Shown here: positions 23,640 to 31,863 of the stretch, one piece after another
Position numbering within the stretch: position 1 is the first letter of the stretch
Layout of the letters: every line of letters begins with the position of its first letter
NCBI GenBank assembly: GCA_025058735.1
Contig: JANXDX010000002.1
Location: forward strand, 1 to 37,692
DNA from: Archaeoglobaceae archaeon
GTDB lineage: Archaea > Halobacteriota > Archaeoglobi > Archaeoglobales > Archaeoglobaceae
DNA length: 37,692 nucleotides
Reading direction: 5' to 3'
Made by a program: the position numbers and the translations under genes
The notes under the pieces: model-generated
What the model was told of the DNA's origin: nothing
Database searches by the model: none
The model's input: only the letters and a program-made list of their open reading frames with translations

Positions 23640-25475
23640 TTATTTTTTTAATTTTTTTATTATAAATGCAAGAGCTGCAGACACTAAGCATGCTAAGATC
23701 TCGAAACCTGGAATTGCTTTACCTCTTTCGATCTCAACTATGGATTCAGCAAAACTATTACCTATTTCAGCCTTCACTTTCAAAAATCCAGGATCTTTTG
23801 CTTTTAGCACCAACTTAGCTTTCCCTTCGTTGTCTGTGAGTTTATCGCTGTAAACTATTTCAGCTAAACTGTTGTTTAGATACCATTTCAAGTGCAAGTT
23901 TTTAACTGCAAAAAGGTGTACTTCGAAAGTCTCATCTTTCTTGACTTTCAAGAACTTTGGTCTCAATTCAACTTCAACAGGTTTAGCGATAACTTTTCTT
24001 TCTGCAAAACTTGAATCGAAAAGAACTTTCAAGTTCAACTCTTTATCTTCAACGATCCATTCAATGCAAGTGTTACCTTCAGCTTCTTTTTCAACGTAGA
24101 AATCGTTTATGTAAAACTTCACCCTTCCACTCTTTTCTAGAACTGTACAAACTTTTATTTTTTGTCCAACGAATGGATCTTCTGGTTCAAGGTAAACAGG
24201 TAGTTGTTCTGATCTTTTTAAAACTTTAACAACTTTGATCCCATCGATCCTGAGCCCATCGATATCAACAGAACATCCAACGACATAATCTCCTTCCTTC
24301 TCAGGGATCCAAGGTAAGGTAAAAATTTTCTTTTCTCCAGCTTTCAACTCATCAACGAACATTTTTCTTAAAAGAATTTTTTCAACGTAGAAGCTTAAGT
24401 TGAAAGACGTTAAATTGGCTTTTCCGAAGTTTGAAACTTTTGCAATTATTTCAACCTCTTCTCCCTTGAAAGCCGTATCTGGAACTTCAAGCTCGAGGTC
24501 GATGTTTAGTTTAGAAGCTAGAACTTCGATGATCGCTGAAACTTGATTGTTCTCTTCATCACTCTCCTCCACAAAATCTTCCTCATCTGCAAAGATCGTA
24601 ACAAAGTACTTACCTTCTACCTTCGGTTTCCAGAGAAGAGTTAAAACTTTGATCTCTCCAACTTTCAACCTATCTACACTTAATTTTCTGGCTTCGCTGT
24701 TCAAGTGAAAAGTTACGTAAAATCTATCTATATCAGATCTTCCAGCGTTTAGCAACTCAACTTCGATCTTCACGTCTTGAAAAGTCTCAGGCATTTCAGG
24801 TTCAAACTTTAAGTTTCTAATTCTAATGTCTGGCTTCTCTTTTTGTTTCTCTTCTTTTGGCTTTTCTTCTACTGTTTTCTCCTTTTCTGGAATTCTATCA
24901 ACTACTTTTACTCTTAACTGCTTTGAATCAACCTCAACGAGCATTTCTCCGAAGGGAAGTTTTGAAGTGTCGTATTTAACTGTGTACTTGCCATTTTCAT
25001 CTAGTTTAATCTTAGCCCTAGCCTTAGCTTCTACGTTCACAACTTCACCTCTCGATGCTCCGTAGATTTTAACATCGAAGTTTCCTGCAAAAGGTACATC
25101 TACTCCGATCTTTGCAACTCCATCTACTGCACTTTCTTGCAATTTTCTAGAAAATATCCAAAGTCTAGCTTCTACAGTTAAATTTTCTACTGGCCAGGTT
25201 TTTATTTCAAAGTAAGCTTTCAGCGGAATTGGAAACTTATCTTGCGAGTAGAAATATTGATTGTTAGATGATGGAATTGAGAAATAATAATCAATCGAAA
25301 CTTGAAGCTCCTGCAAAGGACTGCTAAGCAAAGTTATTTCTGCAACTTCTCCTCTTGAAATGTAGTAGGTGTCTCCAATTAAAACTGCGTTAGTTGAAAC
25401 CTCTAAAGCCTCTACTAAATTTATTGAAAAAAGAAAAATAAAAATAATTTTAAAAATTGTTATCAGTTTTTTCAT
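23640..25475 (-). CDS. Secreted CARDB-repeat protein with PGF-CTERM archaeosortase signal
   Basis: A large surface protein, 611 residues. The N-terminus MKKLITIFKIIFIFLFSIN...VEA is a Sec signal peptide. After ~170 residues of beta-rich sequence comes a charged Lys/Glu/Pro linker (~195-220, EKTVEEKPKEEKQKEK), then two CARDB-type beta-sandwich repeats: ~220-310 (IEVELLNAGRSDIDRFYVTF ... ESDEENN) and ~320-410 (IIAKVSNFGKANLTSFNLSF). A third Ig-like part follows. The C-terminus has PGF at 589-591, a hydrophobic stretch and IIKKLKK. This is the PGF-CTERM arrangement recognised by archaeosortase A, which trims the tail and attaches a lipid. It is co-translated behind the gene at 25472 (ATGA). The ligand is unknown, and no archaeosortase gene is in the window. 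Confidence 0.85.
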   Translation of the reverse strand: MKKLITIFKIIFIFLFSINLVEALEVSTNAVLIGDTYYISRGEVAEITLLSSPLQELQVSIDYYFSIPSSNNQYFYSQDKFPIPLKAYFEIKTWPVENLTVEARLWIFSRKLQESAVDGVAKIGVDVPFAGNFDVKIYGASRGEVVNVEAKARAKIKLDENGKYTVKYDTSKLPFGEMLVEVDSKQLRVKVVDRIPEKEKTVEEKPKEEKQKEKPDIRIRNLKFEPEMPETFQDVKIEVELLNAGRSDIDRFYVTFHLNSEARKLSVDRLKVGEIKVLTLLWKPKVEGKYFVTIFADEEDFVEESDEENNQVSAIIEVLASKLNIDLELEVPDTAFKGEEVEIIAKVSNFGKANLTSFNLSFYVEKILLRKMFVDELKAGEKKIFTLPWIPEKEGDYVVGCSVDIDGLRIDGIKVVKVLKRSEQLPVYLEPEDPFVGQKIKVCTVLEKSGRVKFYINDFYVEKEAEGNTCIEWIVEDKELNLKVLFDSSFAERKVIAKPVEVELRPKFLKVKKDETFEVHLFAVKNLHLKWYLNNSLAEIVYSDKLTDNEGKAKLVLKAKDPGFLKVKAEIGNSFAESIVEIERGKAIPGFEILACLVSAALAFIIKKLKK

Positions 25476-27367
25476 CTTTTTCTCTTGATCAGATAGACTA
25501 TCAAGGCTAAAACTACGATTATTGCAACTACTGCTCCTCCTATCACTTCAACTCCAATCGGTGGCGGTACTGGAGTTGGAGTAGGTGTTGGAGGTATTGG
25601 AGTTGGAGTAGGAGTTGGGGTAGGTGTAGGAGTAGGTTTAGGAGCTTCCAAGACAACAGCGAAGTAACTAAAGCGTGGAACTTCAGCTCTATAGTAGTTG
25701 TACTTGTCATCTTTTCTGACAAATTCTGTTTTGAGCTCTATCCAACTCTTTCCATCAAACCTGAGCATTGTAGCAATAACGTTGTCAGGATCGAAACCTT
25801 TTTCTCTAATTTCATCTCTTTCAATGACAAAGTTTATGTAACCTTTAACATCGGTTTCCTTGCTAAGAATCAAATCCATTTTCATTAAAAGAGCAATAAC
25901 ACCGACTGGTGTCGGTATATTTGCTGGTACTTCTTTGAGTTTCTCGATCCTAATTCTTAAATTGACATCCTCTCGCGGTACTACAACAACTGAGACTACG
26001 TTCGTGTCTAAAACTACAGTCAGTGGCATTTTAACTTCATACTCTTCTTTGGCAACTACAACGTAGTAAGGAGTAAGATAAATTGGTATTCCTGGTAAAA
26101 CTGCTCCACCACCGATCCCGATACGTGGTACTGGTGTAGGAGTTGGAGTAATTGGAGGAACAATTGGAGGTGGAGTTATCGGAGGAACAATTGGAGGTTT
26201 GATTATATTTACACTAAGACTTCCAAAGTAAAGCGGATCAGCTTTTTCCTTTTCAAAAGCAACGATGTAAAGAATGTAATTTCCTAATTCTAGGCCTTTT
26301 GTTTCTAAAATTAACTCATCATCTTCAATCCCATAGTTGTAGCTGAACATATTTTTTGGAGCTTTTATTCCAAGCTCTCTGTCAAAAACTTTTATTTTTT
26401 CAATTTCTTTATTTTCATAATTTAATTTTATATCAAAAGCGTCAACTATCTTTTTCGTTAAGTTTACCTCTATTTCTGCATCGTATTTATCATCTTTTAA
26501 AAGAAGAGCAAACGCCATTCCAAACTCTTTTTTGAATTTTAGTACCAGATCTTCACCTTCAACGATTGTTGATTTGAATTCTGGTCTATTTTCTTTAGAT
26601 GTCCCATTCAAAACAAAAAATGGAACAGCAAGTTTAAAAATTGGATTTCTGTACTCATCTAAGCTAATAACTGTTAACATGTAGTAACCTGGAGAGAGTT
26701 TTCTTAGGTCTGGTGGAAGGCCACCTGGAAGACTATCGTTTATTCTAAAGTTTGACAGTTGAATCGAATTTATTTTGATGGTTTCGGTTATGTTTTTTCC
26801 CAGAATGAATTCATTTGTACTTTTTTTAATAACTTTGATTTTGTTTTCAGTTTCATTATAACTTACTTTAGCCCAACCAGTGTAGTTGAAAGCGTATCCG
26901 TACTCTGTCATTTCTAGAAGTTCTTCAAAAGTTATACCTTTCAGAAAATTTTCAATATTTTGTAAGTTTTCTAGAAAATCTTCAATATTAAGCTTTAGAA
27001 CTACTGGTAGTCCAAAACTATCTATTTTAATCAAAACGTCCAAACTAGAGTTTATGTCGTAAATTATGGAAGTGTCAGGAAAACTTTTTAAAGTGGTGTT
27101 AGTTATCCCAGTTGTTTGAATCGTATAATGTGCTTTACTTCCTGGAATCAATTTTCTATCGAGTTCATCTAAAGGTATAGGAAAACTGCTAGCTCCGTAG
27201 AATTTAAATTTAACGAAGCTTTCATTATAAAAATCCCAAAAGCAAATTTTTGTAACGTTTATTTCTATGACTTCTTTAGGAAGATCTCTTGTTGCACAAA
27301 AAAACTCTTCTGCTGAGCAGGAATATATAGCAAAAAGACCCAAGAGAAGTAGCAATAAGATCCGCAT
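25472..27367 (-). CDS. Secreted PGF-pre-PGF-like protein with Thr-Pro linkers
   Basis: A 631-residue exported protein: signal peptide MRILLLLLLGLFAIYSCSA, then a long Asn-rich ectodomain with many N-x-S/T sites (NVT, NES, NTT, NGT). Around residues 385-410 and 575-600 there are Thr-Pro/Pro-rich linkers (PTPTPTPTP). Between them lies a domain resembling the PGF-pre-PGF module: VNLRIRIEKLKEVPANIP, ETDVKGYINFVIERDEI, NVIATMLRFDGKSWIEL and VPRFSYFAVV. The C-terminus VIGGAVVAIIVVLALIVYLIKRKR (in two pieces) is a transmembrane anchor without a PGF tripeptide. Such modules sit near archaeosortase targets on S-layer-type proteins. It is first in a two-gene operon with the PGF-CTERM protein. A role in the cell envelope is inferred. 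Confidence 0.78.
   Translation of the reverse strand: MRILLLLLLGLFAIYSCSAEEFFCATRDLPKEVIEINVTKICFWDFYNESFVKFKFYGASSFPIPLDELDRKLIPGSKAHYTIQTTGITNTTLKSFPDTSIIYDINSSLDVLIKIDSFGLPVVLKLNIEDFLENLQNIENFLKGITFEELLEMTEYGYAFNYTGWAKVSYNETENKIKVIKKSTNEFILGKNITETIKINSIQLSNFRINDSLPGGLPPDLRKLSPGYYMLTVISLDEYRNPIFKLAVPFFVLNGTSKENRPEFKSTIVEGEDLVLKFKKEFGMAFALLLKDDKYDAEIEVNLTKKIVDAFDIKLNYENKEIEKIKVFDRELGIKAPKNMFSYNYGIEDDELILETKGLELGNYILYIVAFEKEKADPLYFGSLSVNIIKPPIVPPITPPPIVPPITPTPTPVPRIGIGGGAVLPGIPIYLTPYYVVVAKEEYEVKMPLTVVLDTNVVSVVVVPREDVNLRIRIEKLKEVPANIPTPVGVIALLMKMDLILSKETDVKGYINFVIERDEIREKGFDPDNVIATMLRFDGKSWIELKTEFVRKDDKYNYYRAEVPRFSYFAVVLEAPKPTPTPTPTPTPTPIPPTPTPTPVPPPIGVEVIGGAVVAIIVVLALIVYLIKRKR
25555..25645. 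repeat. Short GT/GA-rich repeat encoding the Thr-Pro linker
   Basis: On the plus strand GTTGGAGTAGG-type units repeat about every 6 or 12 bp, encoding the Thr-Pro-Thr-Pro stretch before the membrane anchor of the gene at 25472. A second, shorter tract at ~26120-26200 encodes the PPIVPPITPP linker. Such tracts are prone to slippage and length change. Confidence 0.75.
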
Positions 27368-28048
27368 AGAATATCAAGGTTTTCAAAGTTTATAAATTTT
27401 TTGTTGTTAGTAGGTAACTTTAAACAAAAAAGGATGCGTAAACGTAGCTAAAAAATTAAAATTACCTGAGTTACAGCTAAAGTAGTTTATACGTAGACTA
27501 AAGATGAAAACTGAGAAAAGTACGTTAAGAAAAACAACAGTATTTTCTCTATTCTTTCTAAATAAAAAATACAAGAAAAAATTAGAATAAAAAATTATTT
27601 TAAAAAATAAAAATATAAAAAATTTTTTTTAAGTGTTAAAAGATTTTCACAGCTTTTTTAACATTAGTACTCTTCAAGCAAAAGATCGTAGAGAAGAGAA
27701 CAGATGAAGTTAACAAATATCTTTGAGAGAGTTTGCGACTCAAAAAGTGAATAAGAGGAGTATTTCCAAGAAAACCTCAAAACTTAAAGATAATAGAAGA
27801 GCAAAAAGATAGACCTAGAAAGTATTGTCAAAACCATCGACTGATCAAACCGTCATTACCACAATTTGTTAAATTTCTTTGTAGAATAAAACTAATTTTA
27901 AAGAGAAATCTAACTTCTTCCTCATCTCCATACTCGCATCAAAAACGATGTAAAAATCTCCTTCCCATTCTTTCAAAATTAACTATAAGCTCTCTAAACC
28001 TTGCAGAGTTGTTACCTAATATAAATAATAAATAATATAAAAAGAAAT
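27368..28048. other. Gene-poor, AT-rich part of the island, including a DUF58 fragment copy
   Basis: About 680 bp without an intact gene between the secreted-protein operon and the acylphosphatase fusion. 27540-27660 is almost pure A/T. 27660-27860 has no open frame of note. 27888-28007 is a diverged copy of part of the DUF58 gene (listed separately). No RNA gene or complete mobile element was recognised. Confidence 0.6.
27888..28007 (-). pseudogene. Broken 120-bp copy of the DUF58 gene's MIDAS region
   Basis: This stretch matches 31178-31302, inside the intact DUF58 gene, in the same orientation. By eye the alignment shows four substitutions and one 5-nt gap over ~120 bp. The gap (AAAATTAACT here, AAAAATTCTTTAACT there) shifts the frame, so no protein can be made. 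The source piece encodes residues ~188-229, the SAR...FDASREM segment of the DUF58 vWA-like domain. The closeness of the match says the copy is fairly recent or was corrected by gene conversion. Confidence 0.88.
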
Positions 28049-28726
28049 TTACATAAGCCCCGCTCTTCTTAAAGCATCTTCTATCCTAGAAATCCTTGCG
28101 TTCAATTCTTTCATGTTTGATTCTAAATAATTCCTGAAATCGGAGCGAAGAAGTTCGAGTTTTGTATTCATTTCTTCTAGTTTTTCTGAAATGGGCTCTA
28201 TCTTCCTTCCCAACTCCTCCCTAGTCATTTCTATCTTCTTTCCAAGTTCTTCTCTCGTTAAATCTATCTTCCTTCCCAACTCCTCCCTAGTCATTTCTAT
28301 CTTCTTTCCAAGTTCTTCTCTCGTTAAATCTATCTTCCTTCCCAAATCTTCTCTCGTCTCTTCCAACTTCTGGATCATCAAATCCTGTTTTTCAACCATG
28401 TTTAGCATTATTGGAATAGCTTTTCCCCAGTGTTCCATTTGAAAAGCTTGCATACATCTCTCTATCGGAGGAACTACATAATGATATTCTTCAACTTCTA
28501 TCGCTTCTACAATCGCTTTTTCTGGCTTTTCTACTTTTATTCTTTCCTTAAAAACTTCAAGAACTTCTTTTGGTGCATCTATTAAAACGAGAACAGACTC
28601 TTTATTGTTTGAAAATGTGTTAAAAACGGCAAATCTCTCAATTCCATATTCCAAAGCGATGTTTATCAACTTAACTCTATAGCCAACTCCGTGTACTTTT
28701 CCTTTAATAGTTATCTTTAAGGCCAC
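28049..28726 (-). CDS. Acylphosphatase-domain protein fused to an 11-residue-repeat coiled coil
   Basis: A 225-residue two-part protein. Residues 1-~82 are an acylphosphatase-like domain: GKVHGVGYR with R17 and VFN with N36, the two residues acylphosphatases use, although the usual DG after the Asn is replaced by TFSNNKES. A middle helix (~88-120) has FQMEHWGKAIPIMLNMVEKQ. Residues ~122-180 are repeats of 11 residues (REELGRKIDLT / REELGKKIEMT), followed by a further coil to the end. The DNA carries two exact 66-bp copies and part of a third. Hendecad repeats favour long, right-handed or straight coiled coils. The product probably forms oligomers, and its target is unknown. It is the only intact gene in a decaying island, with a TATA-like stretch ~28740-28755 upstream. 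Confidence 0.78.
   Translation of the reverse strand: MALKITIKGKVHGVGYRVKLINIALEYGIERFAVFNTFSNNKESVLVLIDAPKEVLEVFKERIKVEKPEKAIVEAIEVEEYHYVVPPIERCMQAFQMEHWGKAIPIMLNMVEKQDLMIQKLEETREDLGRKIDLTREELGKKIEMTREELGRKIDLTREELGKKIEMTREELGRKIEPISEKLEEMNTKLELLRSDFRNYLESNMKELNARISRIEDALRRAGLM
28198..28350 (-). repeat. Tandem 66-bp repeats inside the acylphosphatase-coiled-coil gene
   Basis: 28198-28263 and 28264-28329 are identical 66-bp units, and 28330-28350 begins a third that drifts after ~16 bp. Each unit is two 33-bp halves, each encoding an 11-residue coiled-coil repeat (LGRKIDLTREE and LGKKIEMTREE). Exact identity including silent positions points to recent expansion. Confidence 0.95.
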
Positions 28727-30154
28727 AAAAACATTTTACATCTTATTTTATAAATTTTTCTGTTTCATTTTCAAGGAATTTGAGATAGCCTGATTCAATT
28801 TTTATATAATTTTATAAAATTTTAATTTTTAATAATTATCTTTAATATAAGTTGCCACTTAAATTGTTTATAGGTGTCATTAACTGGGAAGTTGGATAAA
28901 ATCTAAAAGTGAAGCAAGATTTGACAATTCTTAAATTCTATCTATTTTTATCAACTTTTTCCGTAATCTAATTTTCAAGCTCCTTTGTTTTCCCACATCT
29001 CCTCTAACTTTATTTTCATCCTGTTTTGAAGTATCTGCTTTTCTAAGCATTGTAAGATTAGAATCGTTAGAACGGTTGGCGTAGAAAGATTAACTGAAAG
29101 CGAGTAAAACGTCTTCTAAGGAATTTAATAATTAAGAATTATTTATATCCTAAAAACCAGAGGAGCAATTTGGATAGACGAAAAAATTAGAGCTAAATTA
29201 AAGGCCGTTTCAATGTTGGTTGCAGGTGATATGAAGATAGTTTTTTTGTTGATCAAAAGATTTGCTTACAGGATCTTGCTTCAATTTAGATTGCAATTTC
29301 GCATCCTACAATTTAGAAGTTTTAACAGTGAAAAATATCAAAGAATTTAATATGTTTTCAAATGGAATAAAGAGCAACAAGTGCGGAAGTATTTAAGGTT
29401 TTTTGAGAGAGACAAATTCGAACAAGAGATAACTATCTTCAAACCTAAGAATACTGAGTTGGAGATCATGCGTTTAAACGTGGTTTCAAAGGTGTTGAGT
29501 TGAAAAAGGTATAATCACTCGAGCTATAACAAATAATAAATTTTTAGGCTTAAAACTGTTCTTAGATTCTGTTCTGGAAAAGTTTAAGCATAAGGATTTG
29601 AGCATAGCATTCAAAGAAGTTATAGATTTTAGGTTGAAAGCGGGCTTTTGGAATAGAAACAGCCCCTCTTACATGTGACCTTTAGAAACTTGTGAAGAAA
29701 AGAGAAGTAATTGCTAGAAGGATAGGTATTGAGGAGAATTAGCTGTTGTAAGTGAAGAGAATCGATACCACAATAGATCCTATGAAACGTTAACGATGAT
29801 TGATGAAAGTGAAAAAGTGTTAGAATTTTCATAAAAATGAGATTAAAACGATTCAAGTAAAAACTTCAACAACGTGTGACAACAAAATAGAACTATCTTC
29901 AAGCCTTTTAGATTAAGTGGTTCCCTAAAAATTTTTATAGAGCAGATAGTGTATGCACAGAATTGATCAACTTGCTCAGCTGCACGATAAAGTTCTGAAA
30001 CGAGCAAAGTTTGCGCATAATCAAAAAAATTTGGTTTGAAGTTTTTCAGATCGAGGAGTTGAATCGCTATCTCTCAAAGATTTCAAACGATTTTGCATTT
30101 GAAAGCTTTTGATCTTTTTTATTTCCATTCTCTAAGTGCAATACGATCTTCAAG
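28727..30154. other. Gene-poor decaying region
   Basis: About 1.4 kb without an intact gene. 28727-28870 is very A/T-rich with TATA-like boxes. 28900-29130 has only short open frames. 29132-29678 looks like a broken gene (separate entry). 29690-30120 holds further short open pieces on the plus strand, for example KLVKKREVIARRIGIEEN near 29690-29740 and MHRIDQLAQLHDKVLKRA near 29953-30006, all cut by stops. No family could be named, and no inverted-repeat ends or target duplications were found by eye. Confidence 0.55.
29132..29678 (+). pseudogene. Likely broken gene of unknown family
   Basis: One plus-strand frame is open from 29132 to 29350 (72 codons, stop TAA), continues in the same frame from 29351 to 29503 (50 codons, stop TGA), and the frame one base over is open from 29499 to 29678 (59 codons). 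Protein-like pieces include IWIDEKIRAKLKAVSMLV, RKYLRFFERDKFEQEITIF and KHKDLSIAFKEVIDFRLKAG. This pattern, an in-frame stop plus a frameshift, suggests a former gene of ~180 codons. I could not assign it; a transposase or an antitoxin-type regulator are possibilities without support. Confidence 0.4.
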
Positions 30155-30679
30155 CTATCTTTTAATTTTTCCAATCCAGAAAAAGCATATGAAAGCTGTT
30201 ATCGAAGAGATCACAACTGCTTGACTTGCAGTACTTCCAAGATGATTTATCTGTTGACTGAAAATAAGAAAAATTGAAAAGAGGAAAAATGGAAGAAGAG
30301 AAACGAGTACTCCTTTTTTCGGTTTTTCTTGATAAAATCTGTATAAAAGTGATACGATCAAAATTGAAAGCATAAATTCGATGGAGAAGAATCCAAGGAT
30401 AGTCGTAACTGCAAGAAAGTGATCTTTCATCTCAATCCTCTTGACGTTCAGCCCCTCTTCAAGTAGTAAGATCGTTGCAAATATTACAGCCAACTTCTGA
30501 ATTTCCAGTTTGTAAAAGTCCTCAGCTAAAAATTCATAGCTCAAGAACATAGAATAAAAGAGAAAAGAGTACAAAAAAACGTCTTTTCTCCAATAGCTGA
30601 TTAAATATAAAAGTGGTGCAAAAAACAAAGTCTTTGCGAAAAGTACTGCGAGAACTAGTGATGCGATTGCAGAGATCAA
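30155..30679 (-). CDS. Small multi-pass membrane protein at the end of the MoxR/DUF58 operon
   Basis: A 174-residue integral membrane protein with about five hydrophobic segments: ISAIASLVLAVLFAKTLFFA, FLYSFLFYSMFLSYEF, KLAVIFATILLLEEG, FSIEFMLSILIVSLLYRF, VLVSLLPFFLFSIFLIFSQ and a last AVVISSITAFICFFWIGKI. No family recognised. It starts with TTG overlapping the DUF58 stop (30676-30679), with AAGGTGAG upstream, so it is co-translated with DUF58 and likely part of the same membrane complex. It marks the border to the decaying island. Confidence 0.75.
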   Translation of the reverse strand: MISAIASLVLAVLFAKTLFFAPLLYLISYWRKDVFLYSFLFYSMFLSYEFLAEDFYKLEIQKLAVIFATILLLEEGLNVKRIEMKDHFLAVTTILGFFSIEFMLSILIVSLLYRFYQEKPKKGVLVSLLPFFLFSIFLIFSQQINHLGSTASQAVVISSITAFICFFWIGKIKR

Positions 30680-31863
30680 GTTCTCACCTTGAAAAGATCG
30701 TCCCCAGGCCCAACGTCGATCGTTGGAACTACTGAGTTGATCTTTCTTATCAACTCCTCCCTCTCAACGTAAGCTCTGTAAAGCTTTAAAACAACGTCCT
30801 TTGTCAAAACTCCTCTGTAAAATAGAACTGGATTTGGAGAAATCAAAAATACTTTACATTCCTTTTTAACCTCAAGGATAACTCTCAAAAGCTCATCTGG
30901 ATTTGAAAGGTCTGAGATGAAAATTAGGAAAGATTTCCTCGGAATTTTTTTGATCAGATCTAGAGAAGTCGTTGGCATTTTTTTCAAAAAACTCCTTAGA
31001 AGTTTAGAAACAACTAGCTTTGGAACCTTTAAACTCAACTCAGCTTTTGTAGGATTTATCTTTAGTTCGCTTTTTATCTGTGAAAAATCTTCGCTAGCTT
31101 TCACAAACCTCTTGACTCCAAACTCATCGTAAACAACAAGCCCAACTCTCTTTCCCTTCAAAGAATTCAGCAACAGAAAAACTAATTTTAAAGAGAAATC
31201 TAACTTCTTCCTCATCTCCCTACTCGCATCAAAAACGATGTAAAAATCTCCCTCCCATTCTTTCAAAAATTCTTTAACTATAAGCTCTCCAAGCCTTGCA
31301 GATGCTTTCCATTCTATTTTTTTTGCATCATCACCGAATACAAATTTTCTCAGAGAATGGAAATCTGTTTCGATTCCAAAAACAGATCTATGAGGAGCTC
31401 CGATCTTGGTTTTTTCCTTGATAGCTTCAACAGACGGCAAAACTTCAACTTCAACTTCGGGAATTCTGAGCTTTTTTTCAAAAATTTCTCTTGAATCGAA
31501 AATTTCTAAAGATCCTTTTATCCTGTAAACTCCTTTTAAAGGAATTAAACTGTATTCAAAAGATTTTTCTCCAGGTTCAGAGAGAAATTCAACTTTTTCG
31601 CTGAAACTAGGTTCTTCAAGAAGTTTTATTTTGTAAACTTTCCTAGTAAAGTTCTTAACTTTTAGCTTAGCTGAAGTCCTCTTACCTTCGTAAAGAACTC
31701 TTTCAACTTCTCTGTAAGCTTCAATCTTTGGTTCAAATTCAAGGTAAACGTAAAAAACGTAAGTTGCAATTGAAAAAGCTAAAAGTGCTGGAAAAATATT
31801 TTGGAGAAGATATGATTGAGCGCAGAGGAAAAATATTGTCAAAGCTAAGATCTTTGCATTCAT
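30676..31863 (-). CDS. DUF58 domain protein (vWA-like), membrane-anchored
   Basis: A 395-residue DUF58 protein, the usual partner of MoxR ATPases. Two N-terminal hydrophobic segments (residues ~5-42) anchor it, and a beta-rich region follows. The DUF58 signature reads LRKFVFGDDAKKIEWKASAR (residues ~171-190), followed by LIVKEF and a vWA-like metal site FDASREM at ~208-214. A later FLIFISDLSNPDELL corresponds to the second metal-site loop. MoxR/DUF58 pairs are thought to help assemble or insert metals into other proteins, often at the membrane; the client here is unknown. The start overlaps the MoxR stop by ATGA. A broken copy of residues ~188-229 lies at 27888-28007. Confidence 0.9.
   Translation of the reverse strand: MNAKILALTIFFLCAQSYLLQNIFPALLAFSIATYVFYVYLEFEPKIEAYREVERVLYEGKRTSAKLKVKNFTRKVYKIKLLEEPSFSEKVEFLSEPGEKSFEYSLIPLKGVYRIKGSLEIFDSREIFEKKLRIPEVEVEVLPSVEAIKEKTKIGAPHRSVFGIETDFHSLRKFVFGDDAKKIEWKASARLGELIVKEFLKEWEGDFYIVFDASREMRKKLDFSLKLVFLLLNSLKGKRVGLVVYDEFGVKRFVKASEDFSQIKSELKINPTKAELSLKVPKLVVSKLLRSFLKKMPTTSLDLIKKIPRKSFLIFISDLSNPDELLRVILEVKKECKVFLISPNPVLFYRGVLTKDVVLKLYRAYVEREELIRKINSVVPTIDVGPGDDLFKVRT

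What the first reader, a model, noticed from the sequence alone, without database searches (positions are those of the whole stretch)
27888..28007. Broken copy of the DUF58 gene's metal-site region 3.3 kb from the original
120 bp here match 31178-31302 in the same orientation with four mismatches and one 5-nt gap. The rest of the gene is absent. A lone internal fragment copied in direct orientation is unusual: it could be left from a tandem duplication that collapsed, from insertion of a reverse-copied or repaired piece, or serve as an antisense/targeting RNA against the DUF58 message.
Basis: seen in the sequence. Interest (0 to 1): 0.6.

Follow-up and report, generated by a model that had tools for sequence, protein, structure and literature searches.

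The report
Decaying scrap of a nearby gene
A 120-letter piece of a gene was copied once into the gap beside a neighbouring gene in this archaeon's chromosome and is now drifting without sign of a function, so it is an ordinary kind of genomic debris.

Summary
Window 27888-28007 (120 nt) matches 31178-31302, inside the DUF58 (vWA-type) gene, in the same orientation, with 4 substitutions and one 5-nt gap (E = 2.5e-47). The rest of the gene occurs nowhere else in the 1.22-Mb genome (an Archaeoglobaceae MAG). None of 39 other genomes searched, 9 of them from the same genus, carries the fragment. Comparison with two orthologues shows that the four substitutions are derived in the fragment, not in the gene. 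Three of four would change an amino acid and the gap shifts the frame, so the fragment drifts without coding constraint. Its edges are sharp, with no target-site duplication and no notable structure. In 459 kb of the genome it is the only gene-to-intergenic copy apart from tRNA cross-matches. It is best read as debris of a local illegitimate-recombination event. The two likely routes, template-switch patch or tandem duplication trimmed by deletion, cannot be told apart here. An antisense or guide role is unsupported. A more interesting item lies 41 bp away: an acylphosphatase/coiled-coil gene 94% identical in DNA to one in another species whose core genes are only about 70% identical, the similarity being confined to the gene and about 60 bp upstream.

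The parts
27888..28007 (-). Fragment: decaying 120-nt copy of DUF58 codons 188 to 229 (last codon partial)
   Evidence: BLAST E = 2.5e-47, 4 substitutions plus a 5-nt deletion; all substitutions derived in the fragment
31178..31302 (-). Source stretch inside the intact DUF58 gene
30676..31863 (-). Intact DUF58 gene (395 aa), in an operon-like run with MoxR, DUF4350 and DUF4129-like genes
   Evidence: Pfam PF01882, E = 1.3e-8; orthologues with the same gene order in G006 and G001
28049..28726 (-). Acylphosphatase-domain/coiled-coil gene 41 bp upstream (in - sense) of the fragment; part of a multicopy family, apparently acquired or moved
   Evidence: Pfam PF00708, E = 2.7e-9; 94% DNA identity with G005 against about 70% for core genes
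27368..28048 (.). Intergenic stretch holding the fragment; low GC (0.26 left of the fragment, 0.12 in the last 41 bp)
   Evidence: no homologue in relatives apart from short AT-rich matches
28727..30154 (.). Noncoding stretch between the acylphosphatase-like gene and the DUF58 operon; no recognisable homologue or domain (first ~60 bp are the conserved upstream region of the acylphosphatase-like gene)

Best explanation
The fragment is non-functional debris. At some time after this species split from its known relatives, an illegitimate recombination event within this chromosome put a 125-nt internal piece of the DUF58 gene into the intergenic space 3.3 kb away, in the same orientation. The copy has since collected four substitutions and a 5-nt deletion under no visible coding constraint. 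Shown: the copy, its direction (gene to fragment), its sharp edges, its rarity and its lack of coding potential. Inferred: the route. Either a single template-switch or repair patch (about 50%), or a tandem duplication of 28008-31302 later cut back by one deletion (about 40%). In the second route 28007|28008 would be the duplication junction and 27887|27888 the deletion junction.
For: Exact match with sharp ends and no flanking similarity. At all four substituted positions the gene, not the fragment, agrees with at least one orthologue at the changed base. Three of the four substitutions would change a residue (L to F, G to R, R to M) and one is silent, against 81% non-synonymous expected at random; the 5-nt gap breaks the frame. 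No open frame of use. Not in 39 other genomes. Only gene-to-intergenic copy in 459 kb of the own genome except tRNA cross-matches, and the only local one above 85% identity besides a repeat inside one gene. DNA next to the same operon is variable in relatives: a recombinase-like ORF in G006, a TnpB-like ORF in G001 (by inspection). A perfect 66-nt tandem duplication starts 190 bp away and is absent from the G005 homologue, so tandem duplication does occur here.
Against: The event itself is not seen: no relative shares the flanking intergenic DNA, so no empty site could be compared. No diagnostic microhomology or target duplication remains at the edges. Four substitutions are too few to exclude weak constraint by statistics.
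Confidence: 0.86

Rival explanations
1. The fragment makes a small RNA (antisense, decoy or guide) that regulates the DUF58 message.
For: High identity to the message; it could be transcribed by read-through from the gene at 28726-28049.
Against: Read-through gives the same sense as the message, so it would not pair with it. Neither strand folds notably better than shuffles (z = 1.15 on the - strand, -1.30 on the + strand). No Rfam family in the region. The promoter scan finds no more sites than shuffles, though it covers only bacterial promoters. Not conserved in relatives.
Confidence: 0.04
2. The fragment came in from another strain or species together with the neighbouring acylphosphatase-like gene.
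For: It lies 41 bp from a gene with signs of recent transfer.
Against: The fragment is 97% identical to the own gene, while the nearest DUF58 orthologue found is about 74% identical in DNA there. No fragment lies beside the G005 copy of that gene.
Confidence: 0.06
3. Assembly artefact of the MAG.
For: The genome is a fragmented assembly of 29 contigs; no reads were available.
Against: The two copies differ at four positions and by an indel, all substitutions derived in the fragment, which a misplaced read of the own gene would not show.
Confidence: 0.04

Closest known systems
Gene remnants/pseudogene fragments in prokaryotic intergenic DNA
   Same: Short, disabled, decaying copy of part of a functional gene in a noncoding gap
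   Different: Here the intact parent is only 3.3 kb away and just 120 nt are left or were ever copied
Templated insertions (filler DNA) of microhomology-mediated end joining
   Same: Short, locally copied, sharp-edged piece. Microhomology-mediated end joining is reported in archaea (PMC7690668; for Saccharolobus, PMC12019639)
   Different: No microhomology remains at the edges; the passages read describe mostly 1-2-nt indels, not patches of this length

Membership tests
Pseudogene fragment (gene remnant) | Significant similarity to a functional gene | tested here: met
   E = 2.5e-47
Pseudogene fragment (gene remnant) | Incomplete and disabled reading frame | tested here: met
   120 of 1188 nt left; 5-nt frameshift; stops around it
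Pseudogene fragment (gene remnant) | Changes accumulate in the copy, without coding constraint | tested here: met
   4 of 4 substitutions derived in the fragment, 3 of 4 non-synonymous; small numbers
Templated insertion of end joining | Microhomology at the junctions | tested here: not met
   No in-register base shared next to the edges and no repeat longer than 5 nt across them; later decay could have erased it, so membership is not claimed
Trimmed tandem duplication | Direct orientation with the intact gene continuous across the unit end | tested here: met
   Geometry fits unit 28008-31302
Trimmed tandem duplication | Pre-duplication state in a relative | tested here: inconclusive
   No relative shares the flanking DNA
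Antisense/regulatory RNA | Discrete transcript complementary to the target | not testable with these tools
   No RNA data; orientation argues against it
Mobile-element insertion | Terminal repeats or target-site duplication | tested here: not met
   No shared repeat above 5 nt at the edges and no multicopy element

The most novel reading that the evidence does not exclude
The fragment is a cis-encoded regulatory RNA, or a reservoir for gene conversion acting on the vWA metal site of the DUF58 gene.
Probability: 0.03. Interest if true: 0.5.

Novelty: new member of a known kind. Interest (0 to 1): 0.1.

Why it matters
It matters little on its own: one decaying scrap of a gene. It suggests that partial local copies are rare in this compact genome (one in 459 kb sampled), and it marks the gap between two operons as a place where DNA has been gained and rearranged, next to a gene that appears to move between species.

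Tried and rejected
Other copies or further pieces of the DUF58 gene in the genome: none. A recurring system of gene fragments in this genome: none in 459 kb; the three other asymmetric pairs are tRNA genes, one of them crossing a false ORF and confirmed with Rfam. In 400 kb of relative G009, 11 asymmetric pairs were listed and not pursued. A decayed transposase in 28786-30154: no convincing Pfam match in the three + strand frames read through stops (the - strand was not scanned), no DNA relative in 59 other genomes. Known RNA families: none. Relatives of DUF58 in the named genome collection: none found. Viral contigs for the neighbouring gene: none.

Full report
Observation. Self-comparison of the window gives 27888-28007 against 31178-31302, same orientation, four substitutions and one 5-nt gap, E = 2.5e-47. 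The source lies inside a 395-aa ORF on the - strand (30676-31863) that matches Pfam DUF58. The copied stretch starts at codon 188 and spans 'SARLGELIVKEFLKEWEGDFYIVFDASREMRKKLDFSLKLV'. This includes the beginning of the vWA-type metal site, although the gene itself has E where the canonical DxSxS motif (my own knowledge) has its second S. Protein and DNA searches of the whole own genome (1.22 Mb, 29 contigs; the window is one whole contig) find only these two places apart from short, mostly AT-rich matches.

Setting. Two of nine congeneric genomes gave a DUF58 orthologue (G006 51% and G001 47% identical). In both it follows MoxR- and DUF4350-type genes and is followed by a small membrane protein, as in the window. 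Beyond that membrane protein the DNA differs in each genome: a recombinase-like ORF in G006, a TnpB-like ORF in G001 (read from the translations, not tested by profile), and in the window a 1.4-kb noncoding stretch, then an acylphosphatase-domain/coiled-coil gene (28049-28726), then the fragment, then a gene for a PGF-pre-PGF-domain protein (25472-27367). The fragment is absent from all 39 other genomes searched, and the 1.4-kb stretch has no DNA relative in 59.

Direction and decay. The four codon changes from gene to fragment are CTT to TTT, GGA to AGA, GAG to GAA and AGG to ATG. At each changed base the gene agrees with at least one of the two orthologues and the fragment with neither. Thus the changes happened in the fragment. 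Three of four are non-synonymous, close to the 81% expected by chance, and the 5-nt loss breaks the frame. The numbers are small, but nothing suggests constraint. The fold of either strand is unremarkable and no Rfam family matches.

Uniqueness. To see whether such fragments form a system, I compared 459 kb of the own genome (about 38%, about 90% coding) with itself. The DUF58 fragment is the only gene-to-intergenic copy; three other asymmetric pairs are tRNA genes, one of which overlaps a false ORF. Only one other local repeat above 85% identity and 60 nt exists there, the 66-nt repeat inside the acylphosphatase-like gene.

Mechanism. The edges are sharp: the bases immediately beyond either edge differ, and no repeat above 5 nt spans the fragment. 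That speaks against a long duplicate that merely diverged, because 97% identity inside and none outside does not arise by gradual drift. Two routes remain. In one, a repair or replication template switch copied 125 nt and returned: one event. In the other, a tandem duplication of 28008-31302 (3295 bp) formed, which keeps the right-hand DUF58 gene whole and puts the piece ending at 31302 directly left of 28008; a deletion then removed the rest of the left copy: two events. Direct orientation and closeness fit both and slightly favour the second; economy favours the first. No relative shares the flanks, so the empty site cannot be compared. Microhomology-mediated end joining is reported in archaea (PMC7690668; for Saccharolobus, PMC12019639), but the passages read describe mainly 1-2-nt indels, so neither is direct precedent for a 125-nt patch.

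Antisense idea. The fragment and the DUF58 message have the same sense, and the nearest upstream gene is on the same strand, so read-through would give sense RNA. An antisense RNA would need its own + strand start, for which there is no evidence. The archaeal promoter type is not covered by the scan used, so this is not excluded outright.

Neighbouring gene. The acylphosphatase-like gene is the more notable feature. The similarity ends at the stop codon on one side and about 60 bp upstream of the start on the other. The family has several members per genome in this genus and relatives in other archaea. It was not pursued further because it is outside the finding.

Verdict. A true but ordinary feature: a decaying scrap of a nearby gene. 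Interest is low.

Noticed in passing
28049-28785: Acylphosphatase-domain/coiled-coil gene with about 60 bp upstream is 94% identical in DNA to one in another species of the genus (G005, MAG SKYB47) whose core genes are only about 70% identical; similarity stops at the stop codon and about 60 bp upstream of the start. Suggests recent horizontal movement of a single gene; terminal repeats were not systematically looked for.
   Followed up: partly
28197-28328: Perfect 66-nt (22-codon) tandem duplication in the coiled-coil part of that gene, absent from the G005 homologue, so probably recent.
   Followed up: partly
28786-30154: 1.4 kb of noncoding DNA without any recognisable homologue in a genome that is about 90% coding; origin unknown.
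   Followed up: partly
L084:7173-8525 and L085:8675-9880: In relatives G006 and G001 the DNA beyond the DUF58 operon holds a recombinase-like and a TnpB-like ORF, suggesting that this flank is a frequent site of insertion.
   Followed up: no
L155:18927-19150: In relative G009, a 224-nt direct repeat (94% identical) 1.15 kb apart and only partly coding; a possible parallel case of a local partial duplication.
   Followed up: no
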